This document shows positions 20,037-39,313 of a stretch of 63,912 bases of DNA, piece after piece (the stretch's first letter is position 1; every line of letters begins with the position of its first letter). The stretch comes from Gordonia sp. UBA5067 (GTDB taxonomy: Bacteria > Actinomycetota > Actinomycetes > Mycobacteriales > Mycobacteriaceae): assembly GCF_002414845.1 (NCBI RefSeq), contig NZ_DIAX01000066.1, positions 1 to 63,912 on the forward strand. The letters are read 5' to 3'. Made by a program: the position numbers and the translations under genes. Under the pieces are notes generated by a model, which saw only the letters and a program-made list of their open reading frames with translations, ran no database searches and had not been told where the DNA came from.

Positions 20037-20447
20037 CTACCGGGTGACCGAGTCGGCGAGGCGATCGGTGATCGCCGTGACCACGATGCCGACCAGGGAG
20101 ACGATGATCGCGGCCCAGATCGCCGACCACCAGAAGCTCTCGACGATGAGACCCCAATGGGTGACATGCCGGGTGAACCAGGACACCAGCCACAGCATGA
20201 GTGCGTTGACCACGACGTGGAACAGGCCGAGGGTGAGGATGTAGAAGGGGATCGACAAGATCTGGACGACCGGCTTGATCAATGCGTTGATGACACCGAA
20301 GATCACCGCGACGAGCAGGACGATGCCGACCTGCTGCCACCGCTGGCCGGCCTCGCCCCACACGAAGTACATGCTGTCGGGAACCAGGAGGGTCGCCAGC
20401 CACAGGGTCAGACCGGTGGTCGCGGTGCGCCAGAGAAAAGGGATCAT
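20037..20447 (-). CDS. Phage-holin-4-superfamily membrane protein (YvlD-like)
   Basis: 136 aa with four hydrophobic segments. FGVINALIKPVVQILSIPF and TLGLFHVVVNALMLWL are characteristic of the holin-4/YvlD family, small chromosomal membrane proteins rather than prophage lysis genes. The ATG at 20447 (MIPFLWRT) is chosen because the 26 extra residues of the longer frame are non-hydrophobic. It is divergent from the large operon starting at 20564. Confidence 0.85.
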   Translation of the reverse strand: MIPFLWRTATTGLTLWLATLLVPDSMYFVWGEAGQRWQQVGIVLLVAVIFGVINALIKPVVQILSIPFYILTLGLFHVVVNALMLWLVSWFTRHVTHWGLIVESFWWSAIWAAIIVSLVGIVVTAITDRLADSVTR

Positions 20448-20563
20448 GGCCCGATCCTGCCAGAATCCGGACGCATCGGTGGCGCAAATCCGGTGGCCAC
20501 CGGGCGACGCGGCGGATCCGCTCATTCGTCCGGGTCACCCAGATGTCCGGCCCATGTGAAAGC

Positions 20564-21187
20564 ATGTCAACCGTGTCATCGTTCAATCCGTTTGGCCCGG
20601 GCAACGATCCGAGGCAGTCGCCGCCGCCCGGGCCGATGCCGGGGGGTTCGCCCAACAGCGGTGGCCGGCCGGGCAATCCGGGGGCCTACCAACAGCCCGT
20701 GCCCCCGCCGCAGCACGGACAGTCCGGGCCGGGCGATCGGCGACAATGGTCGCCCCCGGCGGCCGGACAACCGCAGAGCCCGGGCCGACACGAGGTTGGC
20801 GGGCAGTTCGGTGCCGGCGCCGGCCAATACGGTCCCGCAGCGACCGGGTTCAATGATCCGCAGGTCCCGGCCGTCGCCAGTTCGATCACCATGTCCGCCC
20901 CGCCGAACGGGCTCCTGATTGTCGCCGCGGCGTGTGCCGGCGCCGGCGGCCTGATCGGCGCCCTCGGATGGGGCCGGTGGTGGTCCCTGTTGGGGTGGCT
21001 CTTGGCAGGGCCGATCGCCATCTGGCTGGTGGCCAGGTTTGTCGCGGTCGACACCGAGCGGAAGACGGCGACGGTATATTCGCGACCCGGTTCGACGGGC
21101 GTGTTGTGGGCGGTGGCGATCGTGCTGACCGTCCTCGGGATCGCGGTGACCGCCCTGGCCGTCGGGTTCTGGATCGGGCGGTTGTGA
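20564..21187 (+). CDS. Proline/glycine-rich membrane protein, first gene of the vWA/tubulin/GTPase operon
   Basis: 207 aa. The first 105 residues are a disordered Pro/Gly/Gln-rich tail starting SSFNPFGPGNDP; after it come about three hydrophobic segments (LLIVAAACAGAGGLIGALG, SLLGWLLAGPIAIWLVARF and a C-terminal AVAIVLTVLGIAVTALAVGF). No enzyme motif. An ATG at 20543 is an alternative start. Its stop overlaps the next start (TGATG). No convincing promoter was seen in the 116-base divergent spacer 20448-20563. Likely a membrane partner of the vWA protein; the NPF motif recurs in other products of the operon. Confidence 0.75.
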   Translation: MSTVSSFNPFGPGNDPRQSPPPGPMPGGSPNSGGRPGNPGAYQQPVPPPQHGQSGPGDRRQWSPPAAGQPQSPGRHEVGGQFGAGAGQYGPAATGFNDPQVPAVASSITMSAPPNGLLIVAAACAGAGGLIGALGWGRWWSLLGWLLAGPIAIWLVARFVAVDTERKTATVYSRPGSTGVLWAVAIVLTVLGIAVTALAVGFWIGRL

Positions 21188-24012
21188 TGGCCGGGGGAGG
21201 AGTTGTCGTGGTGCGGTCAACCGTGGCGCGCTGGTGTGCCGCGCTCGCACTGGCGGTGCTGTTCGCGCCACTTGGGCTACTCGTCGGTGCGGCGGCCCAC
21301 GCCGAGCCCGCCGACGCCGCCGTCTCGAGGTTCGCCTCGTGTGTGGCCGGCCAGAAGAGCGGACAGGTGTTGTTCCTCATCGACGAGTCGCTGAGCCTGC
21401 AGAAGTCCGACCCGAAGGCGGCCCGGGTCGCCGCGGCGAAAGAGCTGGCCCGCCAATTGCAGCTGGCCTCCGATCGCGACGCGGCCCAGCTCGACGTATC
21501 GATCGCCGCCTTCTCCGACAGCTACCGGGTGATCACCGACTGGACCGCCCTGGGCAACGATTCCATGGGTGCGGTCACCGACGGACTCGCCAAGCTCGAG
21601 ACCAGCAATACCGGCCGCGACACCGACTATGCGACCGCGCTGACCAGCGCGGCCGCCTCGCTGGCCGCCAAGCGCAAGCCCAACGCGGCGCCCGGTTGCC
21701 AGATGATCGTGTGGTTCACCGACGGCGCCCTCGATTTCGACTACCAGAACCGCGGCCAGGTCGACAAAGAGTTCGCACCCGGCCAGCAGCTCAACAGCCC
21801 GGCCGACCGCGATGCGATGAAGAAGGCCGCCGAATCGAGCATCTGCCGCCCGGGTGGTGTCGCCGACCAACTGCGCTCGTCGGGAGTGATCACCGTCGCG
21901 ATCGGTCTGGACGCCCAGTCTCGTGCCGCCGACTTCAACCTTCTGCAGGCCATCGCCACCGGCGCGGCACCCGGCGGGCGGACCTGCGGAACGGTCACCG
22001 AACCAGTGCCCGGCGCGTTCTACCGGGTGACCGACATGGATGGTCTCCTGCGCGCGTTCGCCCTGATCGGCGGCGGGGCCGGCATCGAAACGAAGCGTGG
22101 CGCATGTGCGCGCAACCGCGTGTGCGAGGACGCCAAGCACCGGTTCGTCCTCGACAAGTCGGTGTCGAGCGTCAGCATCTTCGCCGATGCGACCACCCCC
22201 GGTCTCACCCCGGTCATCGTCGCCCCCGACGGCAGCGAGCATCGCCTGGATGCCGGTAAACCCGGCAAAATCGATGTGGGCGGTGCGGCCATCACCTATT
22301 CATCGCCGAGCGACAAATCGGTGTCGATCGAGATGTCGAGTACCGACGCCGCGAAATGGCGCGGCGTGTGGGCGCTGGTCTTCGTCTCGCCCGAAGCTTC
22401 GGTCAGCGCGCAAACCCAGTCGAATATCCGCATCTACGGCGACCTCGCGCCGGCCTGGCCCGGCAACGGCAACACCAAGCTGCGCAGCGGTGACAAAGCG
22501 GCGCCCTTCTTCTTCGTGGTCACGAACAAGAAAGGCCAGACGGTTGCCGTGGAGGATCTGCCGGGCACCGTTTCCTTCAGCGCAGAGCTGGTGACTCGCG
22601 CCGGTAGGACGATTCCGGTCGCCGCGGATGTGCCGAAGAACAAGCTGACGCAGAAGCGGACGGCTGATCTTGCGGGGGTGGCGCCGGGCGCGGCGACGCT
22701 GCACATGACGCTCGCGGTTACCACGGCGCCGGCGCGCGACGCGAAGGGCAAACTCGTTGCCGGCACCCCCCTCGTTCCCAAGGGCGTAGACCTGCCGGTG
22801 ACGATCAACCCGCCGGCCGGCTATCCGCAGGTGCCCGCGCGCGTCGACTTCGGTACTGTGACCGGCGCCGGCGAGGCCTCGGCACCGCTACCGGTGGACG
22901 GTTCGGGCTGCGTGTGGGTCGCCCCGCAGGGGGCGACGAAGGTACAGGCGGCACCGAGCGGCGCCGATGGGCTCACGGTCACCTCGACCGCCACGAGCCG
23001 CGAGAACTGCGTCAAGTCGGCCGGCGATGGCACGACGACGTCGCTTCCGCTGACCCTGCACGTGCCGAACCAGGCGCGGGGCACCGCGAGCGGCACGGTG
23101 ACCGTGATGGTCGCCAAAGCCGACGGAGCGGGCCAACCGCAGGCGATGGACGTGCAGTTCAGTGCGATCCTCGCCAAGAAGCAGGACACGGCCAACACTA
23201 TTCTGGGCGTCTTGGCGGCACTGCTCCTCGGTCCCCTCGTGCCGCTCGGTCTGGCTTACCTCGCGAAGTGGTGGACCGCTCGCATTCCCGCGCGTTCGCT
23301 GCGTGCCGAGGCCATCGCGGTAACCGTCAGCGGGTCGTCGATCCTGCGTGCGGGGGAGCCCTTCGCCTTCCGCGACAACGACTTCGTCCGGATGGTGCCC
23401 GGCACGGCGAGACCGTCGCGCCACCTCGACCTGGGGCCGGGGGGAGTGCTCGACACCCGAGTGGGCCGATCACCGTTCGGCACTGGTTTCGTCGTGGCCA
23501 GTGCGCCGGGAATGGTCGGTGCCGCCGGGAAGACCGGGGACACCTTCGGTCCGGCGCCGGACGCGAAGCTGCCGCTGAACGTTCACAACCGGTGGTTTGT
23601 CCTGCACAACCCGAGCGGCAGTCCGGACCAGGCGACCGTGGTGGTGCTCGTCGGCGACGACGCCGGCCGCGCCACGGTGGAGCGGTTCGCCGAGGAGATC
23701 ACCGAGTCCCTGGGCGCCGTGCTCGCCACGCTGCGCCAGCAGGCCGGGGCCGCGGCGGCCACCTCGGATCCGGCCGACCCGTTCGGCGGCGCAGGCGGCT
23801 ACGGCGGCCGGGCCGACCCGTTCTCAGCCGGACCCCCGGCACCCGGCCCGGGCTCGTTCGGCCCCCCGCGGCACACCGGTCCGGCCCCCCGCGGTCCGGC
23901 CCCCAGTTCTCCGGGGCACGGCGGACCACCCCCGGGTGGTCCAGCAGCGGGTGGTCCAGCACCCGGCTGGGCAGGACCCCCGCCCAGGGACTACAACCCG
24001 TTCCAAAACTGA
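21187..24012 (+). CDS. Secreted-domain vWA protein with transmembrane helix and Pro-rich cytoplasmic tail
   Basis: 941 aa. A signal peptide (about residues 1-38, ending AAAHAEPA) is followed by a von Willebrand factor A domain with intact MIDAS start DESLS (Asp66, Ser68, Ser70) and a FTDG loop. Beta-rich extracellular regions follow to about residue 660, then one transmembrane helix (about 668-692), a cytoplasmic domain and a Pro/Gly-rich tail with ADPFGG, ADPFSAG and C-terminal NPFQN. The best RBS, GGGGGAGGAG at 21192-21201, favours GTG at 21208 as start; ATG at 21187 overlaps the previous stop. The topology suggests a receptor binding a ligand outside by the metal site and signalling inside. 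Confidence 0.82.
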   Translation: MAGGGVVVVRSTVARWCAALALAVLFAPLGLLVGAAAHAEPADAAVSRFASCVAGQKSGQVLFLIDESLSLQKSDPKAARVAAAKELARQLQLASDRDAAQLDVSIAAFSDSYRVITDWTALGNDSMGAVTDGLAKLETSNTGRDTDYATALTSAAASLAAKRKPNAAPGCQMIVWFTDGALDFDYQNRGQVDKEFAPGQQLNSPADRDAMKKAAESSICRPGGVADQLRSSGVITVAIGLDAQSRAADFNLLQAIATGAAPGGRTCGTVTEPVPGAFYRVTDMDGLLRAFALIGGGAGIETKRGACARNRVCEDAKHRFVLDKSVSSVSIFADATTPGLTPVIVAPDGSEHRLDAGKPGKIDVGGAAITYSSPSDKSVSIEMSSTDAAKWRGVWALVFVSPEASVSAQTQSNIRIYGDLAPAWPGNGNTKLRSGDKAAPFFFVVTNKKGQTVAVEDLPGTVSFSAELVTRAGRTIPVAADVPKNKLTQKRTADLAGVAPGAATLHMTLAVTTAPARDAKGKLVAGTPLVPKGVDLPVTINPPAGYPQVPARVDFGTVTGAGEASAPLPVDGSGCVWVAPQGATKVQAAPSGADGLTVTSTATSRENCVKSAGDGTTTSLPLTLHVPNQARGTASGTVTVMVAKADGAGQPQAMDVQFSAILAKKQDTANTILGVLAALLLGPLVPLGLAYLAKWWTARIPARSLRAEAIAVTVSGSSILRAGEPFAFRDNDFVRMVPGTARPSRHLDLGPGGVLDTRVGRSPFGTGFVVASAPGMVGAAGKTGDTFGPAPDAKLPLNVHNRWFVLHNPSGSPDQATVVVLVGDDAGRATVERFAEEITESLGAVLATLRQQAGAAAATSDPADPFGGAGGYGGRADPFSAGPPAPGPGSFGPPRHTGPAPRGPAPSSPGHGGPPPGGPAAGGPAPGWAGPPPRDYNPFQN

Positions 24013-24017
24013 GTGTC

Positions 24018-24031
24018 GAATCGATCGATTC
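24018..24031. promoter_or_regulatory. Perfect 14-bp palindrome before the tubulin-like gene
   Basis: GAATCGATCGATTC reads the same on both strands. It occupies the 40-base spacer 24013-24052, the largest gap in an operon whose other genes overlap or nearly touch. The RBS AGAGGA follows it. It could be an operator, an internal processing hairpin or chance. Confidence 0.4.
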
Positions 24032-24052
24032 CGTGAAGAGGATTGAACACAG

Positions 24053-27000
24053 ATGAAGCGTTTTCTGGTGGTCGGCTGCGGTGGTTCCGGTGGAGCCGCC
24101 CTGGCGTACATGATGGATCAGCTGGAGTCCGATCTCCGGTCCCACGGCATCAACAAGCTGCCCGCCGGCTGGCAATTCGTCCACCTGGACGTGCCGACTT
24201 CGCCGTCGCCGGTCGCCGGCGTCGGCACGGTGCCCGACCACGGTGGCCAATACGTGGGCACCGGCCCGGAAAGCGACGGGTACAAGATCCTCGACAACGC
24301 GCTGTCGCAGCGGCTGGCGGCGAACAACGCGCTCGACACCATCGCCACCTGGGCCCCGCGTGAACCCGAGCAGGTCTACACCCCCCTGTCAACGGGTGCC
24401 GGGCAGTATCGCGCACTCGGCCGAATGATCACCCTGAGTCGCGTCGACACCGTGCGCAAGGCACTGCAGCGGTCGTGGGACACCCTGTTCGCCAATTCGA
24501 CCGACTCGGAGATGCGGTCGTTGCGGATCCCCGGCGCGGGTAAGTACAACTCGAACGACCAGCCGATCGTGCTCGTCGTCTCATCGATGGCCGGGGGTGC
24601 GGGCGCTTCGATGGCGCTCGACATCTGCCGCACCCTCACGCTCGTGCAGGGTGTCGACCCGCGCCTGATGGGCGTTTTCATGGTGACTCCCGACATCTTC
24701 GAATCGCTCGACGATTCTGCCGTCACCGGCACCCGGGCCAATGCGCTGGCAATGCTCGGGGAGATCGTTGCCAGTCAGACCGGATCGGCGCGCGAGACCG
24801 ATGTCGACCTGCTGCGGGCCCTCGGCCACGAGAACGGCGAGGGTGAGCGGATCCCGTTCGCCCGAGTCTTCCCGGTCGGGCGCTACGTGGGCGCCCAGCG
24901 GACCGTCTTCGGCGACGGAACACCCGGCGCGGTGTACCGCGGACTCGGTCGCGGGCTGGCCGGACTAGTCCTGTCGGGGACCGCCACCCAGCAGTTCATC
25001 GAATGGGACCTGACCAACCAGGCCGGCGACCAGGGCTCGCTGGAGTTCCTCGGCTGGGGCAACAAGCAGTGGAACAACATCCCGTGGGGATCATTCGGCT
25101 ATGCCAGCCTATCCATGGGCCGTGACCGCTACGCCGAGTACTCGGCGCAGCGGTTGGCGCGCAGCAGCGTCGACAAGCTGCTGCACGGCCACGTCCAGCC
25201 GGGCAACGACAGCTCCGACGAGGAGCAGGTCAACGCAATCCTGGATAACCAGTGGAGCAACATCTGCCACTCGCTGGGCCTGCCCGACGTGGTTGACGGA
25301 TCGGCGAACGTGGTGGCGCCGTGGCTCACCCACACCGTCTTGCCGGGAGACCAGGTGGCGGCGCAGGCGCGCGGGGTGGTCAACTCCTATGTGCGGCCGA
25401 TGATCGACCAGACCCCCGGCATCAACGGCGAGCAGTGGGCCGCGCGCGTCTCGCAGGTGCTCGTCGAGCAGCGCCACAGCCTCGCCGAAGGAGCCAACGG
25501 CGCCGCCTATCACGACGCCTTCGTCTGGCATCAGAACTTCGTCGCCCACCTCGAACAGGCCGCCACCCGCGCGCTGGCCACGCAGGGCCTGCCGTACGCG
25601 ACGGGGCTGGTCAAGCGGGTCGCCCGGCTGCTCGAGGACGTGCTGATGCCGTCCTTGCACGACCTGTCGAAGTACGGGCCCGCCGATATCGCCGACCTGC
25701 CGGGTGAGACCAAGGCGACGCTGGCGGCGCTGTCGGGCACGATCACCAATCCGGCGGCCATCGCCGACGAGGTGTTCGCCGGGTCGGGGCGCACCGTCGA
25801 GCGCCAGGTCTACGCCGCGCTGGCCCATCACGTCGCCAACGCGAGCGGGGCGATGATCACCGAGGTCGTCGACCCGCTGATCGATGCCCTCAACGAGGCG
25901 CAGACGCTGCTGCGCCAGGCGGCCGGCGCGAACCGGCAGCAGGTCGGCCTGGCTCAGTTGCAGACCGACGAATACGCCGCCTGGCCCGCCGACACCGACG
26001 AACTCGTGGCCGAACGGTTCTCCGAGGCGGACAACGAAGTGATGCTGACCCGGTCGGCAGAGTTCAAGCAGCGCTACGAGATCGACCTGCCCGCATCGGT
26101 CGGCGCCACCAGCACCGACCCGCGACTGCTCGGCGAGGGAATCTCGCGCGCCGCCGGTCACGTCGTCACCGGGTACTGGCACACCCTCGACGGCAGCAGG
26201 TCGCCAGCCGAGGAGCAGGCGGTGGTCGAGCGCACCACGACGTGGGTGTCGCGGGCCTTCCCACGCCATCCGGAGACCGGTGACGGCCTGATCGCGCAGC
26301 GCGCCAGCTACGACGTCCACCTGCGCCCGGCCGAGTTGCTGAGCCGGGCCCGGCGCTTCGTGGCGCGCAGCGGTGAGTCGTTCCACCGGTTCTGCTCGGT
26401 GTCGCTGCGCGAGTACGTGGAGGGGGCGGATGCTCCAGAATCCGAGCGCTTCGCGCGTCGCACCGATCTGGAGTTGCGCTTCATCGAGGCCGTCAACCTG
26501 GCCCGGCCGCTGGCCAGTGTCAACGAGAACGCGATGCAAGCCATCCACGGCGTCGCGGAAATGGTCTATCGCTACAAGTTTTCGGCGATACCGTTCCTCG
26601 GGCTGCCCGTCGCCGAGGATCTGAAGACCAGCCTGGGCGCGACGGCGCGGGTGGACAAGAAGAGTGCCGACGCGGTCGGCAATGCGCTCACCGACGAGGC
26701 GCGGATCAAGCGCATCGACATCTTCGGCTCCTACCCGAACTATTCGCCGCTGGCCTATGAGGCCGTGATCGAGCCGGCAGCGCGCCAGTGGCTGGCGTCG
26801 TCCCCCGGGCAGCGCAAGGCGTTCTGGACGATGCGCCGGGCCCGGCCGCTGGAGGCGAGCCTGCCGATGCACGAGAACGAGCGCCGGACGATGGTGGCCG
26901 GGTGGGTCCTGGGCCAGGCGATCGGCTTCATCCAGGTACCGCCGCCGCCGTTCGCCGACGCGGTGCATGTCTGGGATACGGACTCGCGCCGGTGGTTGGC

Positions 27001-27772
27001 GTTCCCGAATCCGCTGTTGACGCCACAGTCGGAGTTCCTCGCCGACTACGACTGGCTCCCCGCGGTGCTGGAGTCGGTGCTCTTGGCGATCGCGCAGAGC
27101 CACAAGCCGCCGGCGATGTCGTCGATGGCGCCCTACCGCGCGCTTCGGCACATCTATGACGCCGGTGCGGAGAACCCGTCGTCCGGACTGGACCAGCGCC
27201 AGCTCGCTGCGACCGTCAACATGGCCAATTGGTTGCGCACCGGGGAGTCCGGGACGGGGGTCGCCTCGGCCATTCCCGATTCCGGTCCGGGGATGCCGAT
27301 TCGCGATCGAGCCGAGAAACTGCGGGCCTACTTCGCCTACCAGCACGAATTCGTATCGAAGAACTACATGGAGCCGGGGCAGGGCGCGACGCCGGGACAT
27401 GCCGGCGCCGAGGGGACCGGGGTCTTCGCCCGGATCACCGTGCGGCAGCAGGCGTCGAAGACGCCCATCTATCGGGATATCGCACCGGACGTCTTCTGGG
27501 CGACCGGCGAGTTGCTGGGTTTGCTGGAGGCCGCGGTCGTGCTGGCCGAACAGGGATCGCCGGCGCCGGCGCCGGCGCCGCACTTCCAGTCCGGGGAGAC
27601 CTTCGCGGTTCCATCCATGGACCCCGCGGCGGCTATCGCGGCTGATCCGCTTGTTCCAGGCCCCGGGTTCGATCCGCCCGGTGCGCCCGGTGCGCCCGGT
27701 GCGCCCGGTGCGTTCGGCGGGGCGAATCCGTTCGGTGGGCCGGAGTCGCCGCGGCAGCCCGGCGGATTCTGA
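24053..27772 (+). CDS. Giant tubulin/FtsZ-like protein (Tubulin_2 type)
   Basis: 1239 aa. The N-terminus has a nucleotide-binding GCGGSGG loop (residues 8-14) as in tubulin/FtsZ Rossmann folds, and SSMAGGAGAS (GGAGAS at 181-186) stands where the tubulin signature GGGTG(S/T)G is expected, so a degenerate GTP-binding tubulin-like domain is inferred over the first 400 or so residues. The rest is long, mainly helical and unrecognised. The C-terminus is a collagen-like PGA repeat with GANPFGGPESP. It is cytoplasmic: no signal or TM seen. Actinobacterial proteins of this type accompany vWA/GTPase systems. Whether it polymerises cannot be told from sequence. TGATG overlap with the next gene. Confidence 0.75.
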   Translation: MKRFLVVGCGGSGGAALAYMMDQLESDLRSHGINKLPAGWQFVHLDVPTSPSPVAGVGTVPDHGGQYVGTGPESDGYKILDNALSQRLAANNALDTIATWAPREPEQVYTPLSTGAGQYRALGRMITLSRVDTVRKALQRSWDTLFANSTDSEMRSLRIPGAGKYNSNDQPIVLVVSSMAGGAGASMALDICRTLTLVQGVDPRLMGVFMVTPDIFESLDDSAVTGTRANALAMLGEIVASQTGSARETDVDLLRALGHENGEGERIPFARVFPVGRYVGAQRTVFGDGTPGAVYRGLGRGLAGLVLSGTATQQFIEWDLTNQAGDQGSLEFLGWGNKQWNNIPWGSFGYASLSMGRDRYAEYSAQRLARSSVDKLLHGHVQPGNDSSDEEQVNAILDNQWSNICHSLGLPDVVDGSANVVAPWLTHTVLPGDQVAAQARGVVNSYVRPMIDQTPGINGEQWAARVSQVLVEQRHSLAEGANGAAYHDAFVWHQNFVAHLEQAATRALATQGLPYATGLVKRVARLLEDVLMPSLHDLSKYGPADIADLPGETKATLAALSGTITNPAAIADEVFAGSGRTVERQVYAALAHHVANASGAMITEVVDPLIDALNEAQTLLRQAAGANRQQVGLAQLQTDEYAAWPADTDELVAERFSEADNEVMLTRSAEFKQRYEIDLPASVGATSTDPRLLGEGISRAAGHVVTGYWHTLDGSRSPAEEQAVVERTTTWVSRAFPRHPETGDGLIAQRASYDVHLRPAELLSRARRFVARSGESFHRFCSVSLREYVEGADAPESERFARRTDLELRFIEAVNLARPLASVNENAMQAIHGVAEMVYRYKFSAIPFLGLPVAEDLKTSLGATARVDKKSADAVGNALTDEARIKRIDIFGSYPNYSPLAYEAVIEPAARQWLASSPGQRKAFWTMRRARPLEASLPMHENERRTMVAGWVLGQAIGFIQVPPPPFADAVHVWDTDSRRWLAFPNPLLTPQSEFLADYDWLPAVLESVLLAIAQSHKPPAMSSMAPYRALRHIYDAGAENPSSGLDQRQLAATVNMANWLRTGESGTGVASAIPDSGPGMPIRDRAEKLRAYFAYQHEFVSKNYMEPGQGATPGHAGAEGTGVFARITVRQQASKTPIYRDIAPDVFWATGELLGLLEAAVVLAEQGSPAPAPAPHFQSGETFAVPSMDPAAAIAADPLVPGPGFDPPGAPGAPGAPGAFGGANPFGGPESPRQPGGF
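27676..27711 (+). repeat. Four 9-bp tandem repeats in the tubulin-like gene
   Basis: GCCCGGTGC repeated four times exactly, in frame, encoding a PGA collagen-like tripeptide run near the C-terminus. Copy number is likely to vary between strains by slippage without changing frame. Confidence 0.9.
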
Positions 27773-30453: not shown

Positions 30454-30457
30454 ATCG

Positions 30458-32797
30458 ATGACGACGAGTCAGGACTTGGTGGCCGCACTGGTGCAATGGG
30501 CCACGGGTGCGGCTGCCGACGGCGGGGCGGTTCCCCCGGATCGGGAACTCGAGGCGATCGCCCGCCGTCCCGATTCCTGGCGCACCGATATCGCGGCCTC
30601 GCCGGCGGCCCAGTACTGGGGAGCGACCATCGACCACGTGCTCGGCCAAGTCCGACTCGGTGTCCTTCCGATGATCGCCGTCGCCCATGTGCCTGCCGGC
30701 CTCGCCCCAACCGGACCGCCACCGCAGCGGCCCGAGGCGCCGGGCGGCCCCGGACGGCACGCGGAGTCGACCGGCTCGGCTCGCCCCGGTGCCGCCACCG
30801 ACCCGGTGGAGGAGTTGACGGCTGCGCTGATCGCGTGGCGCGGCAGCAAGATCGCCGAGGGGGCACCGGGGGCCGAGACGATCAAGGACCTCACGCTGCG
30901 GAACCTCGCCAAACGGGCACCGGTCAGCGCTGAGCAGCTCCGCAAGAAGCTGCCCGGTGCAGGTGCGCTGGTCGACGAGTTGGCGACCGTGTTCGGGCGG
31001 TTCGGCGGCGACGATGCGCCGGTGCTCCCGCCGGTTGATCCGCAACCCGTGCGAGCCGCGGTCGCCCCGGAGGTGCCGCCGGTCGCGCGATCAATAGTCG
31101 TCGATCCCGACCTGCTGGCGCTGACGCATGCCGACTTTCCCGAATTCGCCTTCGACAAGCCCGGCCGGGACCCGGGCGCGATCAGTATCGCCACCACTCC
31201 CGACGGCGTCCGACTGAGTTGGGACGCCTGTTCGGATGGGGCGCGGGTGATCTACCGCGTCGTCTCCGGGGACGAGCCGATACCGCCGTACAAGCCCGAA
31301 GCGGGGGAGTCGCTGGCCGTCACGACGGGGACCTCCGCAGAGGACACCCGGTTTCTCACATCGGCCGTGCGCCACTACCAGGTGTGGGTGCAGGCCGGCG
31401 TGGACGAGGCGTCGGCGCGCGCCGCGCAACCGGTGAAATGGGCGGTGGGCGAGGACATCAGCCCGGTCGAGGATATGCGCCTGACCGAGGACGAGGGGCG
31501 CGTGGTCGGCGAGTGGTCGGTGTTCGCCGGTACGCAGGCGGTCCGCGTGTTCCGCATCCCGCTCGACGAGGGCGGTCCGATCACCACCGACCCGAGATAC
31601 CAGATAGCGCTCACCGAGCCGAACCTGACCGGGTTCGTCGACGCCGATGCGCCACGCGGCCGCCGCTACCTCTACCGCGCGCAGGCCGAGGTGCCGGTGG
31701 GGAACCAACTGCGACTGTCCCGCCCCGCGCAGCAGGAGATCCTGGTCTCGGTCAAACTCACGTCGATCGCCGATCTGGCCGTCGCGATCAGTGCGAACAA
31801 TTCGCAGTTCGACCTGTCCTGGACCACCCCGGAGGGTGGGCAGGACGTGCGCATCTTCCGGTTCCAGCAACCGCCGCCCGCTGGCTTGGAGCGCGAGGAC
31901 CTCGCGGTCGACGCACTGTCCCCGCAAGGGTTCAACGACGCAACGCGCGTCCGGCATCCGGTGAAGGCCGGTACCGACCCGTCGCGGTCACAGATGTCGG
32001 GGGTGCCGTGGCCGAGCGGGTGGGACCGGGCCTACCTGACACCGGTCACCATGGCGTCGGGCAAGGCACGGATCGGGATGACGCGCGTCCTGGCGCGACC
32101 GCTGTCCGCTGTTGTCGAACCGCGCATTGTTGAGCGTTTTCATTGCGAGATGATCACCTTCGGTTGGCCCCGCGGCGCCGCCGCGGTGCGGGCCTACATC
32201 GGTCAGCCTGGAGTCCCATCCGAGCAGCTGTGCCATGGCCGCCCGTTCGGCGAGGTCAGCGCCGAGCAATACCAGCGCGACGGTGCGCTCATCCTGGCGC
32301 GGCCACTGACCCTCAAGGGGTGTCAGGTGGCGCTGGTCGCGGTCTCGTACTCGGCCGGTCGAGAAATCACCGGTGAACCGGTGGGCATCACCTATCCGGG
32401 GCTGGCCCGGATCGCCTACAACCTCGAGCCGCAGCCCGCCGCCCCCGGCCGGCACGTGGTTCGGCTGGTGCTGCACAGCGAGTCGTCGGTGATCGATCTG
32501 CCGCCCCTGGTGCTGGTGCACCGCCCCGACCGGCTGCCGCTCGACGCGGCCGACGGACGGGCCTGGCGGTTCTACTCCGACAGCGGCCAGCAGGTGCCAC
32601 ACTGCCAGATCGGCGGCGAACTCCTGGCGGGCCTGCGCTCGACCGAGTGGGTGGCCGACCTGACAGGCGTCACCGGCTACGTGCGGCTCTTCATCCACGA
32701 CGGTACCCGGCGCAACGGACGTCCGATTGCCATCCTCGACCCGCCGATGGCGAACCTGCGACTGCTGCCGCCGGGACCGCCGCAGGGCGAACGGTGA
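30458..32797 (+). CDS. HRDC-like plus fibronectin-III-like repeat protein
   Basis: 779 aa. Residues about 118-182 look like an HRDC-type helical domain (LTAALIAWRGSKIAE ... TIKDLTLRNLAKRAPVSAEQL), and residues 7-65 like a second, degenerate copy (LVAALVQWATGAAADGG). A Pro-rich linker separates them. From about residue 230 onward several beta-sandwich segments resemble fibronectin type III (VRLSWDACSDGARVIYRVV; FDLSWTTPEGGQDVRIFRF). No catalytic motif. HRDC domains bind nucleic acid or proteins, and the fn3-like part would be an interaction scaffold. The ATG at 30458 sits four bases after the upstream stop; similarity is by eye only. Confidence 0.68.
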   Translation: MTTSQDLVAALVQWATGAAADGGAVPPDRELEAIARRPDSWRTDIAASPAAQYWGATIDHVLGQVRLGVLPMIAVAHVPAGLAPTGPPPQRPEAPGGPGRHAESTGSARPGAATDPVEELTAALIAWRGSKIAEGAPGAETIKDLTLRNLAKRAPVSAEQLRKKLPGAGALVDELATVFGRFGGDDAPVLPPVDPQPVRAAVAPEVPPVARSIVVDPDLLALTHADFPEFAFDKPGRDPGAISIATTPDGVRLSWDACSDGARVIYRVVSGDEPIPPYKPEAGESLAVTTGTSAEDTRFLTSAVRHYQVWVQAGVDEASARAAQPVKWAVGEDISPVEDMRLTEDEGRVVGEWSVFAGTQAVRVFRIPLDEGGPITTDPRYQIALTEPNLTGFVDADAPRGRRYLYRAQAEVPVGNQLRLSRPAQQEILVSVKLTSIADLAVAISANNSQFDLSWTTPEGGQDVRIFRFQQPPPAGLEREDLAVDALSPQGFNDATRVRHPVKAGTDPSRSQMSGVPWPSGWDRAYLTPVTMASGKARIGMTRVLARPLSAVVEPRIVERFHCEMITFGWPRGAAAVRAYIGQPGVPSEQLCHGRPFGEVSAEQYQRDGALILARPLTLKGCQVALVAVSYSAGREITGEPVGITYPGLARIAYNLEPQPAAPGRHVVRLVLHSESSVIDLPPLVLVHRPDRLPLDAADGRAWRFYSDSGQQVPHCQIGGELLAGLRSTEWVADLTGVTGYVRLFIHDGTRRNGRPIAILDPPMANLRLLPPGPPQGER

Positions 32798-32801
32798 GGC
32801 A

Positions 32802-35636
32802 ATGGCCGATCTGACCAAGCGCTCGACCACCGCTGGTCGTGCGATGCCACCGAATACCGCTCCCGCACCCGCCCGGTTCATCGCCGCAGATCGGTGTGGG
32901 CAGCTGACCTACACGTCGTTCGACGACGGTGCGCTCACTGGGCGCGGCACTCTCGGCGGGCCGATGGCGGGCCAGCGCAGCCACGGTGGCGGGTGGCAGG
33001 TCAAACAGATCGCCGGCGAGATCGACCCGGCCCACGTCGAGGAACTCATCGCGCGCATCGTCACCCGGTTCGACCTCGAGCCCGCGTTGCCGGCGTTCCC
33101 GACGCCCGATCAAATCGCGAACCGGCCGGCGCGGCTGTGCTTCGCGGCCGACGACGATGGCGGCGGGCGCGGTGCGTACTGGCACACCGTCGATGCCGGG
33201 CGCGACGGCACCGGCCGCCCGGGCAACGTGTTCGCCCATGTGCTGACCCAGGGGCCGGGCGGGACGGGACTGTGTCCGATCGAACTGTGGCGGTGGGCGG
33301 GATGGCTGATCCCGTACGGCCCAGAGGCGGTCAAAGCCGCAGTCCTGCCTGCTGGTCCGCCGGCCCTGGTGGGCAACCTCGCACTGTCGGTGCAGTCCAC
33401 CGTGGCGTTCCTGCTCGACCCGGTGCGCGACCGTACCGGCGTCGTGCGGGTGCTGCTCGACGCGGTGTCGGCGCGACTGTCCGGGCAGACGCGCGGCCCC
33501 GTCGTGCTGGCCGTCGACGACCATGACCGCGCGGCCGCCTGGATCGCTGCGGTCAGCCACTTCCTCACCCCTGCCGGCGCGAACCGGCTGTGCTGGAGTA
33601 CGCACGAGGCGCCCGAATCGGTCGCGGCCGGAGCCGCGGCCGGGCTGCACCTCGTGGGCGTGCCCCGCGCGCGCAGCGCACAACTGGCCGGGCACCCCGG
33701 GGTCACCGCGGTCATCGACGAGAACGAAGAGCCCTACCTTGGGGATCCCGAATCGGCGCACCGGTTGGCGGCCGGCACGGTGGCGGTGACCGCGCTGTCC
33801 GTCCTCGCGGAAGCGGTGCTCGCCGATCACTCCATCGCGCTGCGGGTTCTCGCGCGGCGCGACGCCGTGGCCGCCGACTTCGAAGGCTCAAGGCAGGTGG
33901 CGGCAGCGCAATCACCAGGGCCACTCGCACCCGAATGGCCGATTGCCGTCGCCGTGCTGGAGGAACCGCAGCTGATCGAATTCCACCCGGACGCGGCAGC
34001 GGTCGTCGTCGACGAGGCGCCGGCGCACCTCGCTGCGGTGGACTGGGCGGCGGACCTGGTCGCGACGGTGCTCCGCAGGCACCCGCCGGCCCCCGACGAG
34101 GCGCTGCGCCGACTGGGCAGCGCTGCTCGCCGTGGCCGCGGAACCGAACTGCTCGCCGCATACGTGCTGCGCGGCGCCCTGGCCGACCCCGCCTGGCTGG
34201 ACCGGTGCGATCTGGCGGCGGTGCCGGCGGTCGGCACGGCACGATTGGGTTCTCTGCGTGCGGAAATCGGGTCCCGGTTCGACGCGTTGGGCACCGAAGA
34301 TCCGGTGACCGCCACCCGGGCGGCGCTGCGCCTGGCCGAGATGATCGAACGCCTCGCCGCTCCTGACGACGACCTTGCCGCCGTGCGCGACGAGGTGGCC
34401 GCGACAACATCGCGGGCCGGATTTGCCGCCGTCGGCACGCTGGGGTGGGAGGATGCGCTCGACGCCGGACAAATCTCGGAGGCGGTGCTCGCACGATACG
34501 TGCGACCGGTGTTCGCCCATCGGCCGGCGGGACAACTGGCGCAGTTGCCGGCCGAGACGGCCCTCTGGCTCTACGGTGCGGCCGACGGGCTCCGCTATGC
34601 GCGACCGGCGCCGGGCACCGCTGATGACGACTACCTGTTCGGCTTCACGACGCTCGCCGTGCTGGCGGCGCCCGAACTGGACATCCCGGCTGACGCGCGG
34701 GCGCACTACGCGGCCGAGGCCATCCGGGGCGCGCTGCGCACGCCGCGTCTCGATGATGCGCAGTGCCGTGACCTCGTCGCCGAGATCGTGGTCCAGCAGC
34801 GCCCCGCGGCGGCGGATTTGCTCGAGTTCGCGACCGCGGGCGCCCGCGTGCCGCCGCAGATCCTGGATTCGCTGGTGTTCAACGGCGAGGTGGACGATGA
34901 AAGCCTGCGGGCCGTGCTGGCGGCGGCCGAGGCGGCTCCACCGGAGCTGGTGGCGGCCGCATGGTTGCGGCTGGTTCGGCGCACCGGGGCCGTACCGGAC
35001 CGGGACCGCTGGTGTGCGAGTGTGGCGGTCCTGGCGAACCTGGCGCCGGGCGTGCCGCAACCCGGGCCGGTCCCGGCGGACACCTGGGTGGCCCGGGCCG
35101 TGGACGAACTCGTGGTCATGACTGCGGCCGGATTCGTGGTCGGCCAGAGTGTCGGAGCGCATTGGGCCGATCCCGGGTCCGGATTCTGCACTGCGCTGCG
35201 TGCGCGGATGACGGGCGCGGCGGGCGGCGCCGAGCTGTACCCGCTGGTCGTCGGCGAACTGGCGCGCGCCGAACGGGCCTGGATCCTCGACACCGCGTGG
35301 CTGGTCGGGGACGCGGTGACAGTCGCAATGGGCCTGCCCGGTGCCGGAGCGGGTCCGCTGGACGGGTTCGGCTCGCCGGCAGAGCCCGAGCACGGCCGGC
35401 CGGTGCCCTGGTCGCAGTCGCTGATCGAGGCGCGTGCGGCCACCGGGGACTATCGTGGACCGACCGACGTGATCGGCCTGCGCGACGCGGCGTGGCTGGT
35501 TGTGCGGGGGCTGGGTGCGGCGTCCGCCGAGCAATTCTTCGCCGAATACCGGAGTGTGGCCGCCGATTGGCTGGTGCGCACCGGGGTAGCGGCACAAGCC
35601 AATGGTCCGGCTGCAGGACTGGGAGGACTGGGATAA
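32802..35636 (+). CDS. GTPase-associated protein 1 (GAP1)-like
   Basis: 944 aa. The N-terminal 250 or so residues resemble the GAP1 N-terminal domain known next to GTPases in predicted conflict systems: CGQLTYTSFDDG at the start, then GRPGNVFAHVLTQ around residue 138. The long helical remainder could be the family's middle and C-terminal parts. No NTP-binding motif of its own was seen, so it is probably an adaptor or effector of the GTPase encoded two genes downstream. The ATG at 32802 follows the upstream stop by four bases; its TAA overlaps the next ATG by one base. Identification is from remembered family features. Confidence 0.68.
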   Translation: MADLTKRSTTAGRAMPPNTAPAPARFIAADRCGQLTYTSFDDGALTGRGTLGGPMAGQRSHGGGWQVKQIAGEIDPAHVEELIARIVTRFDLEPALPAFPTPDQIANRPARLCFAADDDGGGRGAYWHTVDAGRDGTGRPGNVFAHVLTQGPGGTGLCPIELWRWAGWLIPYGPEAVKAAVLPAGPPALVGNLALSVQSTVAFLLDPVRDRTGVVRVLLDAVSARLSGQTRGPVVLAVDDHDRAAAWIAAVSHFLTPAGANRLCWSTHEAPESVAAGAAAGLHLVGVPRARSAQLAGHPGVTAVIDENEEPYLGDPESAHRLAAGTVAVTALSVLAEAVLADHSIALRVLARRDAVAADFEGSRQVAAAQSPGPLAPEWPIAVAVLEEPQLIEFHPDAAAVVVDEAPAHLAAVDWAADLVATVLRRHPPAPDEALRRLGSAARRGRGTELLAAYVLRGALADPAWLDRCDLAAVPAVGTARLGSLRAEIGSRFDALGTEDPVTATRAALRLAEMIERLAAPDDDLAAVRDEVAATTSRAGFAAVGTLGWEDALDAGQISEAVLARYVRPVFAHRPAGQLAQLPAETALWLYGAADGLRYARPAPGTADDDYLFGFTTLAVLAAPELDIPADARAHYAAEAIRGALRTPRLDDAQCRDLVAEIVVQQRPAAADLLEFATAGARVPPQILDSLVFNGEVDDESLRAVLAAAEAAPPELVAAAWLRLVRRTGAVPDRDRWCASVAVLANLAPGVPQPGPVPADTWVARAVDELVVMTAAGFVVGQSVGAHWADPGSGFCTALRARMTGAAGGAELYPLVVGELARAERAWILDTAWLVGDAVTVAMGLPGAGAGPLDGFGSPAEPEHGRPVPWSQSLIEARAATGDYRGPTDVIGLRDAAWLVVRGLGAASAEQFFAEYRSVAADWLVRTGVAAQANGPAAGLGGLG

Positions 35637-36616
35637 TGGCAACCTACGTATTAGACGGGAAGTCGGCGGCGACGCTGGCCCGCCGGCCGCTGGCGGCCCG
35701 GCTCGCGGTGTCGGGCGCACCCAACGCCAATGGGGTGCGACTGGTCGCCCGGACACCCGACGGCGTTCCCAGCGACGCGGTGGTGGAAACCGCGCCGACG
35801 ATGCTGATCATCCCGCATGTCACCGAGGAGATCGTGCTCGGCGCCGTGCCGCAGGGCCGCGAGTTGTTCGCTCCGGGGACCACTGTCCACATGTCGATCG
35901 GCCCGGATACAAATGCCGAGTTCGACGCCGATGTCGCGCAACTGACACCGCGCGATGTGTCCGGTCTGGGGTTCATCAAGCTTGCCAGCGTGGCGCCCGG
36001 TGCCGCCGACACCATCACCGTCACCACGTGGTTGACCCGCCCCGACTCGAAGCTGCCCCCGGTGGCCGAGGCTGCCCGCGTCGCGGCGCGCGGCGTGCTC
36101 AACGCCGATCAGGTCCATGAGTCCCGTGCGCTGCCGGTGCGGCTGCTGGTCGATGCGTCTGCGTCGATGGCACCGTTGTTCGCTGGTGGCCTGGTGGCCG
36201 CGGCCGCCGACCTGGTCGCCGGCCTGGCCGAAGTCGTCTCCGGCACATCGGAGGTGGCGGTCGGCCTGGTCGGCCCGGCCGCGGCGCCACCGGTTCCCAC
36301 CGCGACCAACGGCGTCGGCGCCGCCCTGTCGGCCGCCCCGGCCGGTGGATACGGCCTCAGCGGTGGCCCGGCGGTGGTTGCGGCGCCGGGCACCCTCACC
36401 GTGCTGGTCACCGATGCGCCGCCGGCCGACGCGCCGACCGCGGACCAGGTGGTGCTGATTCTGAGCGGCGCCCGGCCGGCCGGCGCCGCGTTTCGCGGCT
36501 CGGTCCTGGCGCTGACGGACAACCCGGTGCAGGCGTTGATCGCCCATCCCGATGTCGTGGCGCGGGTGGTCGCCGATCTGCTGGCGCCCTTCGCGCTGGC
36601 CGGGGGTGCGCGTTGA
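35636..36616 (+). CDS. Cytoplasmic vWA-domain protein
   Basis: 326 aa. A beta-rich N-terminal region of about 150 residues (TMLIIPHVTEEIVLGAVPQG, TerD-like or beta-sandwich in character) precedes a von Willebrand factor A domain with MIDAS start DASAS (Asp173, Ser175, Ser177). No signal peptide or TM, unlike the larger vWA gene of the same operon. The ATG overlaps the GAP1-like stop (TAATG) and the stop overlaps the GTPase TTG start, so expression is coupled. It is likely a metal-dependent protein-protein adaptor. Confidence 0.78.
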   Translation: MATYVLDGKSAATLARRPLAARLAVSGAPNANGVRLVARTPDGVPSDAVVETAPTMLIIPHVTEEIVLGAVPQGRELFAPGTTVHMSIGPDTNAEFDADVAQLTPRDVSGLGFIKLASVAPGAADTITVTTWLTRPDSKLPPVAEAARVAARGVLNADQVHESRALPVRLLVDASASMAPLFAGGLVAAAADLVAGLAEVVSGTSEVAVGLVGPAAAPPVPTATNGVGAALSAAPAGGYGLSGGPAVVAAPGTLTVLVTDAPPADAPTADQVVLILSGARPAGAAFRGSVLALTDNPVQALIAHPDVVARVVADLLAPFALAGGAR

Positions 36617-37761
36617 CCAAGTGCCCGCGCTGCTTCTCCATGCTCGGCACCGACGACGCCGTCGCCTGGGTGGACCGCGATCCGGCGCAGGTCGTCGTCG
36701 ACCCGGTTGCCTCGGCCTACGCCGGGCGCGAGGTGCGGATGGGTGTGGTGACCCTCGCGCGCCGGCACGAGTGGGCGGGCGAATGGCCGCCCACCCCCGA
36801 CCCCCCGTGTGACCCGGTCTGTCCCACCTGCCATTTCGTCTTGCCGCAGCACTGGTACCACGGCAACGCCATCTGCCTCACCATGGCCGGTGCCCGCGCC
36901 ACCGGGAAGACCGTCTACATCGCGGTCCTGATCAAGCAGCTGCAACGGTTCGCGGCTCGGCTCGACCGGGAGGTGTTCCCCGCCAACGACGAGACGGTGC
37001 GCCGCTTCCGCGACGAGTACGAGAAGCCGCTGTTCGAGGATCGCGGAATCCTGCAGCCGACGCCGCGCGCCTCTTTGCACGGCAGCTACCAGCATGATCC
37101 GCTCATCTTCAATCTCGGCGAGTGGGGCCGCAAGCGTCAGTACCTGGTGATCCGCGACGTCGCCGGGGAAGACCTCGAGGCAGCCGACGTCGGCGGCCTC
37201 TCCTGGGAGTTCTTCTCGCGCGCGGACGCCGTCCTGTTTCTCTTCGACCCGTTGTGCGTCGGCGAGATCGCCAACCAGCTGCGCGACCTGGTGCCCCCGC
37301 CGTCGAGTCTCGGCGGCGATCCGCGCCACGTCCTGCACACCATGACGAACCTGATCGGCAACGGCTCGCCGAAACTGGCCGTGATCCTGTCGAAGTTCGA
37401 TGCGCTGCAAGCGCTGAGTGTCGTCGAGGCCAGCGCGTGGGGCGCGATGATGGCACAACCCGGCGCGGCATACAACCGCGACCCGAGTCTGTTCGCGCGC
37501 ACCTACGACGAGAACGACGGCCAGGCCCTGCACGAGGAGGTGCGCAGCCTGCTCACCCGGCTCGACGCGGGCCCGGCGCTGACGACGATGGTGAACCCGG
37601 TGACCGGGCGGCAGTATGAGCATCGCTTCTTCGCGGTCTCGGCACTCGGGGCCTCGCCCGAGGGAGACAAGCTCAGCGATCGTGGTATCTCGCCGTTCCG
37701 GGTGACCGATCCGGTGCGGTGGGTCCTGGCCGGCAGCAACGTGATGGTGGAGGGCGCGTGA
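36613..37761 (+). CDS. Zinc-ribbon GTPase (double-GTPase / TRAFAC-like) of the GAP1 system
   Basis: 382 aa. An N-terminal zinc ribbon is formed by CPRC (residues 4-7) and CPTC near residue 73. The P-loop is GARATGKT (93-100), the G3 motif DVAGED (Asp182, Gly185) and a G4-like SKFD (260-263), so a GTPase fold is inferred although canonical NKxD is altered to SKFD. TTG start overlapping the vWA stop. GTPases with this ribbon and order occur beside GAP1-type proteins in predicted NTP-dependent conflict systems. Probably the regulatory switch of the operon. Confidence 0.78.
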   Translation: MTKCPRCFSMLGTDDAVAWVDRDPAQVVVDPVASAYAGREVRMGVVTLARRHEWAGEWPPTPDPPCDPVCPTCHFVLPQHWYHGNAICLTMAGARATGKTVYIAVLIKQLQRFAARLDREVFPANDETVRRFRDEYEKPLFEDRGILQPTPRASLHGSYQHDPLIFNLGEWGRKRQYLVIRDVAGEDLEAADVGGLSWEFFSRADAVLFLFDPLCVGEIANQLRDLVPPPSSLGGDPRHVLHTMTNLIGNGSPKLAVILSKFDALQALSVVEASAWGAMMAQPGAAYNRDPSLFARTYDENDGQALHEEVRSLLTRLDAGPALTTMVNPVTGRQYEHRFFAVSALGASPEGDKLSDRGISPFRVTDPVRWVLAGSNVMVEGA

Positions 37762-38363
37762 TGACCAATCCTGGCTTCCGGGGCCCCGATCCGTTCGCGT
37801 CCGGTCCGCCGCGACCGGGTGGGCGGACCGGGTTTCCGGCCCAGCCCGGCTCTCCGCCGGCGCCGATGCGGCCCGAGCCGATGCCGACGCCACCGGTGCC
37901 GGCCGGGGCGCGCCCGAGCGCGCCGCCGGTGACGGTGTGGCTGGCCCTGGCCTGCGTCGCCGCCGCCGCCGGGTTGTGCGCCGCGCAGGCGGCTCTGGGA
38001 GTCCGCGCCGCCCGGCATTCATCGGCCGACGACGCCCAGGTCCACTATCTGGGCCGCGAAGTCGCCGACCTGTCGACGACGGCCATTGTGGTCACCGTCC
38101 TCATCGCCGTCGTCTTCGCGCTGGCCTATCTCGGCTTCGGTTATGCGGTGTGGCGCGGCGAGTCCTGGCCCGCACCACTGGGAACCGTGCTCGCCGGATT
38201 GTCGCTGTTCGGACTGATGGGCGGGACGGTGATCATTGCCCTCGTCGTCGTCGGCGTGGTAGCCGTCGGCTTCCTCTGGTTGCCGCCGTCCCGCCGGTAT
38301 GCGCGCCGCGGGCCCGACTCCGCTGCCGGACCAGCCCCGTTCGATCCGTGGGGAGGCCGGTGA
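37761..38363 (+). CDS. Proline-rich multi-TM protein
   Basis: 200 aa. The N-terminal 50 residues are disordered and Pro-rich (GPDPFASGPPRPGG), then about three to four hydrophobic segments follow (VTVWLALACVAAAAGLCAAQ; AIVVTVLIAVVFALAYLGFG; GTVLAGLSLFGLMGG; VIIALVVVGVVAVGFLW). The tail ends PFDPWGGR. It resembles in layout, though not clearly in sequence, the first gene of the operon. Starts at the ATG overlapping the GTPase stop by one base and is itself overlapped by the TerD-like start. Confidence 0.72.
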   Translation: MTNPGFRGPDPFASGPPRPGGRTGFPAQPGSPPAPMRPEPMPTPPVPAGARPSAPPVTVWLALACVAAAAGLCAAQAALGVRAARHSSADDAQVHYLGREVADLSTTAIVVTVLIAVVFALAYLGFGYAVWRGESWPAPLGTVLAGLSLFGLMGGTVIIALVVVGVVAVGFLWLPPSRRYARRGPDSAAGPAPFDPWGGR

Positions 38364-38878
38364 TCGTGGGGGTGCGCAGAGGGCTACACAAGGTGAGTAT
38401 CGGCGTCAGCTGGGACCTGGCGCCCAGCACGGCGCAACTCGACCTCGACATCGCCGCGTTCGTGCTTCCCGCCGGCGGCATTGTCGATTCCGATCACGAC
38501 TTCGTCTTCTTCAATAACCTCAGCGCGTGCGGCGGGGCGATCAAGCTCAACGTCGATTCCGCGGTGTTCCACGGCTGGAAGGAGGAGATGACGGTGGACA
38601 CTGCGGCGCTGCCAGACCGGATCGAGCGGGTTGTCATCGCGATCTGCTCCTACGGCGGTGAGGCACTGTTCCGGGACTTCCCGGCCGGTCGGGTCGAACT
38701 GTGGGATTCCGATGCCGGCCAACTGGCTCGATACGATCTCGCCGCGGGCTTCCCCGAGGATTCGGCGATGGTCTATGCCGACCTGCGCCGCGACGGCGAC
38801 CGGTGGATCCTCGTGGCCCGCGGCGAACGATTCGACGACTTGGCGTCGATCGCCCGATCGATGGGCGTCAAGGTCTAG
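38360..38878 (+). CDS. TerD-family protein
   Basis: 172 aa. Family features run in order: LHKVSIGVSWD, DLDIAAFVL, DHDFVFFNN, ALPDRIERVVIAICSY, ARYDLAAGFPEDSAMVYADLRR and the closing WILVARGERF. TerD proteins are Ca2+-binding and linked to tellurite and other envelope stresses and to predicted defence systems. The usual GD-x-DDE calcium stretch is replaced here by HGWKEEM, so one Ca2+ site may be lost. The GTG start overlaps the upstream stop (GTGA). Last gene of the operon. Confidence 0.87.
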   Translation: MIVGVRRGLHKVSIGVSWDLAPSTAQLDLDIAAFVLPAGGIVDSDHDFVFFNNLSACGGAIKLNVDSAVFHGWKEEMTVDTAALPDRIERVVIAICSYGGEALFRDFPAGRVELWDSDAGQLARYDLAAGFPEDSAMVYADLRRDGDRWILVARGERFDDLASIARSMGVKV

Positions 38879-39218: not shown

Positions 39219-39221
39219 GAC

Positions 39222-39252: not shown

Positions 39253-39313
39253 ACATCAGCGGGTTGCGCGGGGTTTCGCGCCGCCCGCGGACAAGAAAAC
39301 AGGAGAAGCTGAC

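What the first reader, a model, noticed from the sequence alone, without database searches (positions are those of the whole stretch)
20564..38878. Ten-gene vWA / tubulin-like / GAP1 / GTPase / TerD operon: a candidate membrane-anchored conflict or stress-sensing system
Ten same-strand genes, nearly all overlapping or within five bases, encode two vWA proteins, a giant tubulin-like protein, an HRDC/fn3-like adaptor, a GAP1-like protein, a zinc-ribbon GTPase, three membrane proteins and TerD. GAP1-GTPase pairs and TerD-vWA pairs are known separately from predicted NTP-dependent conflict systems (comparative work of the Aravind group). Here both are joined with a tubulin-like protein and a signal-peptide vWA receptor in one transcript, suggesting outside sensing coupled to a cytoplasmic polymer/GTPase switch. 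The combined function is inference.
Basis: partly seen in the sequence, partly recalled or inferred. Interest (0 to 1): 0.88.

Follow-up and report, generated by a model that had tools for sequence, protein, structure and literature searches.

The report
Ter-linked bacterial tubulin and GTPase operon
A ten-gene block in a Gordonia-type bacterium encodes an already described but untested tubulin, GTPase and membrane-protein machine, and comparison with relatives suggests that it works together with the tellurium-stress (Ter) system rather than as a free-moving anti-phage weapon.

Summary
In detail: ten same-strand genes (20564-38878), Pfam-supported as vWA, Tubulin_2, GAP1-N2/M, DO-GTPase2 (just under cut-off) and TerD. 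That they are newly joined here does not hold: Kaur et al. 2020 describe this actinobacterial GAP1-N2/tubulin layout, Makarova and Koonin 2010 the vWA/FtsZ-like/GTPase core. Added here: (1) genes 1-8, as far as seen, keep order and strand in all 90 distinct loci from nine named families (66 show all eight), and the tubulin tree nearly follows taxonomy. (2) Ter coupling: TerD is in 14 of 14 operon-bearing Gordonia genomes; in 7 of 14 the operon lies in or beside a Ter island, with the slot closed in relatives. (3) Gene 7 is probably a divergent TerF. (4) Gene 4 may be a membrane-anchored tubulin fold (weak); genes 3 and 4 share a C-terminal P-G-F tail. No PADLOC match, no phage copy found and no variable effector in the core speak against a classic arms-race system. 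Best reading: a membrane-tethered GTPase/tubulin stress machine of the Ter network. Function is inferred.

The parts
20564..21187 (+). g1: 207-aa protein, disordered-looking Pro/Gly-rich N-tail with an NPF motif (residue 8), three hydrophobic segments
   Evidence: no Pfam; [DN]PF in the N-tail of 20 of 22 orthologues
21208..24012 (+). g2: signal peptide, extracytoplasmic vWA with intact MIDAS (D59, S63, D172), TM 665-683, Pro-rich cytosolic tail with three [DN]PF motifs (alternative start 21187)
   Evidence: VWA_2 5e-11; MIDAS residues invariant in 18 orthologues; hydropathy; motifs
24053..27772 (+). g3: 1239-aa Tubulin_2/FtsZ-like-1 protein, tail ending in P-G-G-F
   Evidence: Tubulin_2 1e-46; GCGGSG and AGGAGAS invariant in 19 orthologues; relaxed GTP-loop pattern in 19 of 19, strict GGGTG(S/T) in 0 of 19; tail
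27772..30453 (+). g4: 893-aa membrane protein (TM 531-549, 558-576), candidate degenerate tubulin fold (about 1-250 plus 650-850) split by a helical membrane insert
30458..32797 (+). g5: 779-aa protein in the place of the published FNIII/HRDC component
   Evidence: synteny; fn3 in 1 of 19 orthologues only
32802..35636 (+). g6: GAP1 (GAP1-N2 and GAP1-M); fastest-evolving of the large genes
   Evidence: omega 0.26-0.29 in six Gordonia pairs, 0.17 in the two pairs of L072-L074
35636..36616 (+). g7: probable divergent TerF: TerD-like beta-sandwich (about 2-140) plus vWA with intact MIDAS (D173, S177, D260)
   Evidence: AF2 pLDDT 90.9; TerD structures matched by fold; PF10138 vWA-TerF-like in 17 of 36 orthologues at E<=0.1; hhalign to TerF P 1.6e-4
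36613..37761 (+). g8: zinc-ribbon DO-GTPase2 with conserved Walker A, RDVAGED and SKFD motifs
37761..38363 (+). g9: 200-aa membrane protein with a DPF motif in its Pro-rich N-tail; not found in all relatives
38360..38878 (+). g10: TerD in which the acidic loop of canonical TerD is replaced; the only TerD found in this genome (90.8% complete)
   Evidence: TerD 5e-27; one match in the genome; loop change against 3ibz/2kxt and island TerDs
19290..20525 (-). left border: SIMPL gene (19290-20033) and 4-TMS holin-like gene (20037-20525), edge of a variable slot
38997..39987 (+). right border: infA (38997-39218), rpmJ and rpsM (39619-39987) of the ribosomal-protein cluster; infA and rpmJ named from their translations

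Best explanation
This is the actinobacterial GAP1-N2/DO-GTPase/tubulin system of Kaur et al. 2020, here in a Ter-coupled form. Shown: the components, their fixed order, and the recurrent physical linkage to Ter genes. Inferred: an extracytoplasmic vWA receptor (g2) and membrane proteins (g1, g4, g9) form a membrane platform, gathered through [DN]PF motifs in the tails of g1, g2 and g9; a zinc-ribbon GTPase (g8) with its partner GAP1 (g6) is the switch; on activation the tubulin-like g3 assembles at the membrane, docked through a C-terminal peptide type that it shares with g4; the TerF-like vWA (g7) and the TerD (g10) are the Ter-type adaptors that couple the switch to the Ter stress-sensing network. 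The output would be protection or sealing of the envelope under chemical or phage stress.
For: Families and motifs. Published layout matched. Order and strand in all 90 distinct loci, 66 with all eight genes. g7 as TerF. Tails: g3 79 of 90, g4 68 of 86, control 2 of 325; [DN]PF tails.
Against: No functional data. TerD was not seen beside the operon in the other Mycobacterium-group loci, Corynebacterium, Propionibacteriaceae, Brevibacterium, Microbacteriaceae or Pseudonocardia; for most named loci outside Mycobacteriaceae and Corynebacteriaceae only the 5' side could be judged. So Ter coupling is not universal. The operon has several homes in Gordonia, so Ter-island placement could partly reflect permissive slots. 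hhalign of g7 with TerD alone found nothing (prob 0.18), with TerF prob 50; the window's own g7 has no Pfam match. g10 has lost the acidic loop. Polymerisation of this tubulin family has not been shown in what I read; Makarova and Koonin could not identify its T6-H7 elements, and a 2023 study holds that Tubulin_2 history is unlikely to be directly tied to that of FtsZ/tubulin (PMC9871819, passages).
Confidence: 0.5

Rival explanations
1. It is an anti-invader (anti-phage) conflict system in which GAP1/FNIII proteins sense the invader and the GTPase/tubulin assembly is part of the response, as Kaur et al. propose.
For: Published prediction; accessory distribution: 14 of 59 in genus, 7 of 296 in class; GAP1 evolves fastest of the large genes.
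Against: No PADLOC match; nothing found in phage or viral collections; two plasmid records only, both Rhodococcus megaplasmids; other cargo read at its slot is metabolic (mce, methylcitrate cycle, carboxylases; names read from translations); no interchangeable effector in the 8-gene core; omega 0.4 or less throughout; families nearly monophyletic in the tubulin tree.
Confidence: 0.25
2. It is a membrane-remodelling or vesicle machine without a sensory role, as Makarova and Koonin proposed for FtsZ-like-1 operons.
For: vWA + FtsZ-like + GTPase + membrane proteins; fixed gene set and mostly vertical inheritance.
Against: Patchy, hence dispensable; Ter linkage and the TerF-like subunit suggest a stress input.
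Confidence: 0.2
3. The TerD and Ter-island linkage is incidental: the operon lands in permissive slots, some of which lie in the Ter island.
For: At least three different homes in Gordonia; many relatives show no adjacent TerD.
Against: Two of the homes are Ter-island positions, and at the third the operon has its own TerD next to g8/g9 in all seven genomes; other genera show the link in other layouts; g7 itself is TerF-like.
Confidence: 0.2

Closest known systems
[quoted passage not shown]
   Same: Zinc-ribbon DO-GTPase, GAP1-N2/M, one recognisable tubulin with a long C-terminal part, membrane vWA protein, further FNIII-type component
   Different: In the passages read TerD is named once, among signalling domains linked to the VMAP component, and no TerF-like subunit, second tubulin fold in actinobacteria or shared tails are mentioned; its figures and source data could not be seen
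FtsZ-like-1 (Tubulin_2) vWA/GTPase operons (Makarova and Koonin 2010, PMC2875224)
   Same: Tubulin_2 protein, vWA proteins with intact MIDAS, GTPase, lineage-specific membrane proteins
   Different: No OmpA or kinase domain among the ten proteins; GAP1 and a TerD/TerF link are not described in the two of five parts read; its additional files were not seen
Ter stress-response systems (TerD/TerC/TerF; Anantharaman et al. 2012, recalled, not held)
   Same: TerD (g10), TerF-like vWA (g7); in three Gordonia the operon is inside an island whose G154 copy matches StiP-PELOTA, PRTase_2-TRSP, C-C_Bond_Lyase, AIM24, DUF475/TerC and TerD (8 of 10 proteins scanned; 2 have no family)
   Different: This genome has a single TerD, inside the operon; the tubulin/GAP1/GTPase core is not part of the classical ter operon (recalled)

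Membership tests
GAP1-N2 actinobacterial tubulin theme | GAP1 with N2-type N domain and M domain | tested here: met
   PF20013 5.5e-15, PF20014 5.5e-10
GAP1-N2 actinobacterial tubulin theme | DO-GTPase with N-terminal zinc ribbon and Walker B glutamate | tested here: met
   DO-GTPase2 in 15 of 18 orthologues; CPRC/CPTCH in the window and RDVAGED in all 18; the window's own protein scores 25.1 against a cut-off of 27
GAP1-N2 actinobacterial tubulin theme | single tubulin gene with C-terminal helical domain | tested here: inconclusive
   Tubulin_2 over residues 5-373 of 1239; the helical nature of the rest was not modelled, and g4 may be a second tubulin fold
GAP1-N2 actinobacterial tubulin theme | membrane-bound vWA protein with beta-rich and FNIII domains | tested here: inconclusive
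   vWA, signal peptide and TM met; beta-rich and FNIII domains not tested
GAP1-N2 actinobacterial tubulin theme | FNIII protein fused to HRDC | tested here: inconclusive
   g5 in the right place; fn3 in 1 of 19, HRDC in 0 of 19 orthologues
GAP1-N2 actinobacterial tubulin theme | absence of VMAP-ternary systems from the same genome | not tested
   no search made
TerF (g7) | TerD-type N-terminal domain | tested here: inconclusive
TerF (g7) | TerF-type vWA domain with MIDAS | tested here: met
   PF10138 in 17 of 36 orthologues at E<=0.1, best 8e-4, not in the window's own sequence; D173, S177, D260 invariant; hhalign P 1.6e-4, prob 50, against 17 TerF
FtsZ/tubulin superfamily (g4) | tubulin fold | tested here: inconclusive
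FtsZ/tubulin superfamily (g4) | GTP-binding signature GGGTG(S/T)G | tested here: not met
   strict pattern in 0 of 18, relaxed pattern in 0 of 18 g4 orthologues; so g4 is not filed as a tubulin
Canonical TerD (g10) | acidic GDNxTGxGxGDDE-type loop | tested here: not met
   g10 lacks it, the aligned canonical island and Williamsia TerDs keep it; that this loop binds Ca is recalled. The TerD domain itself is met
Known anti-phage system | match to a PADLOC-DB model | tested here: not met
   0 of 10 proteins at E<=0.1

The most novel reading that the evidence does not exclude
The system has two tubulin-fold proteins: the giant soluble g3 and a membrane-embedded g4 without the GTP signature, in which a two-helix membrane and coiled-coil segment is inserted at about the H7/T7 position (read by eye from the model's secondary structure). 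Both end in the same FtsZ-like type of C-terminal peptide and so share one docking partner, while [DN]PF motifs in the tails of g1, g2 and g9 gather the components. g4 would cap or seed g3 filaments on the membrane under control of the DO-GTPase/GAP1 switch and the TerF-like g7, making this the cytoskeletal arm of the Ter stress response.
Probability: 0.3. Interest if true: 0.85.

Novelty: new variant of a known kind. Interest (0 to 1): 0.55.

Why it matters
The Ter system has been known for decades without a settled mechanism (recalled), and the GAP1-N2/tubulin systems are predictions: the eight paper searches made here (open-licence papers only) listed no experimental study of one. If the two are one pathway, as the island linkage and the TerF-like subunit suggest, each gives the other a testable role: Ter sensors would feed a GTPase-gated tubulin polymer at the membrane. 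The laboratory species Corynebacterium glutamicum holds both Tubulin_2 and GAP1-N2 matches (control genomes; the operon itself was not examined there), so a test bed probably exists.
Full report
Observation. The ten genes are present as described, on one strand, at 20564-38878. Eight of nine junctions are within 5 bases if g2 starts at 21187; the g2/g3 gap is 40. Pfam places g2 in VWA_2, g3 in Tubulin_2, g6 in GAP1-N2 and GAP1-M, g10 in TerD, and g8 just under the cut-off of DO-GTPase2; 15 of 18 g8 orthologues match DO-GTPase2, with Walker A, RDVAGED and SKFD conserved. NCBIfam gives only weak hits below cut-off, for g2 and g4, and PADLOC nothing. The window lies in a 3.0-Mb, 86-contig assembly, 90.8% complete; the nearest named loci by tubulin identity are Gordonia.

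Prior art. Kaur et al. 2020 (PMC7159879; passages read) define DO-GTPase/GAP1 systems and state that about 52% of GAP1-N2 neighbourhoods are tubulin-centred; the actinobacterial form has one tubulin with a helical C-terminal domain, an FNIII/HRDC protein and a membrane FNIII/vWA protein. Makarova and Koonin 2010 (PMC2875224; parts 1 and 2 of 5 read) had already linked this tubulin family with vWA proteins and a GTPase and proposed membrane remodelling. So the core is a known kind, and the claim that the combination is new is wrong. Eight paper searches listed no experimental study of such a system; the library holds open-licence papers only.

Conservation. Tubulin g3 is in 14 of 59 Gordonia genomes; the GAP1-N2 and Tubulin_2 models match in 17 of 151 family genomes each (three of the latter weak); g3 matches in 7 of 296 genomes of the class (one weak); this genome is counted in each. 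Gene order was read in 26 loci from unnamed relatives and in the best 80 of 128 named loci. Sixteen are in both sets, leaving 90 distinct loci. The core genes seen are in the same order and on one strand in every one; 66 of 90 show all eight, 88 at least three; the rest run into contig ends or have a g7 that the model missed. The gene models were built from the 26 loci themselves. In the tubulin tree the families are nearly single clades: 10 changes where 9 is least (quick method, long branches flagged, one record with an odd name counted as its own family). No copy was found in phages or viral contigs, and two in Rhodococcus megaplasmids. dN/dS is 0.4 or less in all genes of eight pairs; in the Gordonia pairs tubulin and GTPase are slowest, and GAP1 has the highest value of the large genes in all eight (some dS values are above 1). 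This looks like an old, often lost, accessory unit rather than a shuffled arms-race locus.

Ter linkage. g10 follows g8/g9 directly in 13 of 13 loci with that end on the contig (12 fetched loci, plus the window). Seven operons, this one included, sit between a SIMPL/holin pair and infA-rpsM. In G154, G179 and G191 the operon lies exactly between AIM24 genes and TerC(DUF475)-TerD of a full Ter island; of ten proteins scanned from the G154 island eight match StiP-PELOTA, PRTase_2-TRSP, C-C_Bond_Lyase, AIM24 (two), TerC/DUF475 and TerD (two), and two match nothing. Of ten other Gordonia Ter islands examined, the AIM24/TerC junction is closed (about 100-150 bases) in G157, G161, G177, G178 and G104, wider in G168 and G038, and no AIM24 was detected in G151, G164 and G171; G157 and G161 carry the operon at the infA site. 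G172, G195 and G188 carry it at the TerD end of their islands, G160 within about 5 kb of one. In five genomes, this one included, g10 is the only TerD found.

Outside Gordonia, TerD or TerC-TerD genes flank the operon in Arthrobacter, Pseudarthrobacter, Nocardia, Williamsia, five Rhodococcus loci and one Mycolicibacterium. They were not seen in the other 30 Mycobacteriaceae loci, nor in Corynebacterium (6), Propionibacteriaceae (5), Microbacteriaceae (4), Brevibacterium (3) or Pseudonocardia (1). That absence is partial: the 5' flank reached 3 kb in 20 of 31 Mycobacteriaceae and most of the others, but the 3' flank was long enough only in Mycobacteriaceae (20 of 31) and Corynebacteriaceae (5 of 6). 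Twenty stretches of the infA slot without the operon hold no Ter gene.

Tails. g3 ends in P-x(0-5)-G-x(0-4)-[FILV] in 79 of 90 and g4 in 68 of 86 distinct loci, against 2 of 325 control genes and 0-4 of 52-84 for the other core genes. In the window and its nearest kin (L053-L056) g4 has lost the terminal hydrophobic residue. [DN]PF motifs sit in the tails of g1 (20 of 22), g2 (21 of 25) and g9 (6 of 7), more rarely g3 (4 of 26) and g4 (5 of 26), against 3 of 338 control N-tails and 2 of 338 control C-tails (limits of that control under Tried and rejected). Both patterns were noticed by eye and counted afterwards. They look like docking motifs; FtsZ docks through a comparable C-terminal peptide (recalled).

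Mechanism. The best-supported picture is a membrane platform (g1, g2, g4, g9) with an extracytoplasmic MIDAS-type vWA sensor, a DO-GTPase/GAP1 switch, a tubulin polymer, and Ter-type adaptors (g7, g10). The parts, their order and the Ter linkage in Gordonia are shown; the signal, the polymer and the output are inferred.

Noticed in passing
Window 19290-20525 and 38997-39987; relatives L084-L103: The interval between the SIMPL/holin pair and infA is a variable site in Gordonia: it also holds mce-type operons, methylcitrate-cycle-like genes with an acyl-CoA carboxylase, and a monooxygenase/MarR-like set, or is nearly empty (names read from translations, not scanned).
   Followed up: partly
L080 16595-17098 and L081 10260-12023: Two of three fetched GAP1 loci without the tubulin also have a TerD gene close by (one beside Hsp70-like genes, one a 587-aa TerD protein next to GAP1), so the TerD link may extend to other GAP1-N2 themes.
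   Followed up: no
L068 4224-6576: In G123 a pair of genes that read like a transposase and its helper lies between g5 and g6 (not scanned).
   Followed up: no
L076 1-2357 and 18794-20000: Extra Pro-rich genes whose N-tails carry NPF/DPF motifs flank the operon in G136, possibly further accessory subunits.
   Followed up: no
L223 11129-11842 (the g9 beside L059 911-1357): The g9 of G160 carries four [DN]PF motifs in its first 70 residues.
   Followed up: no
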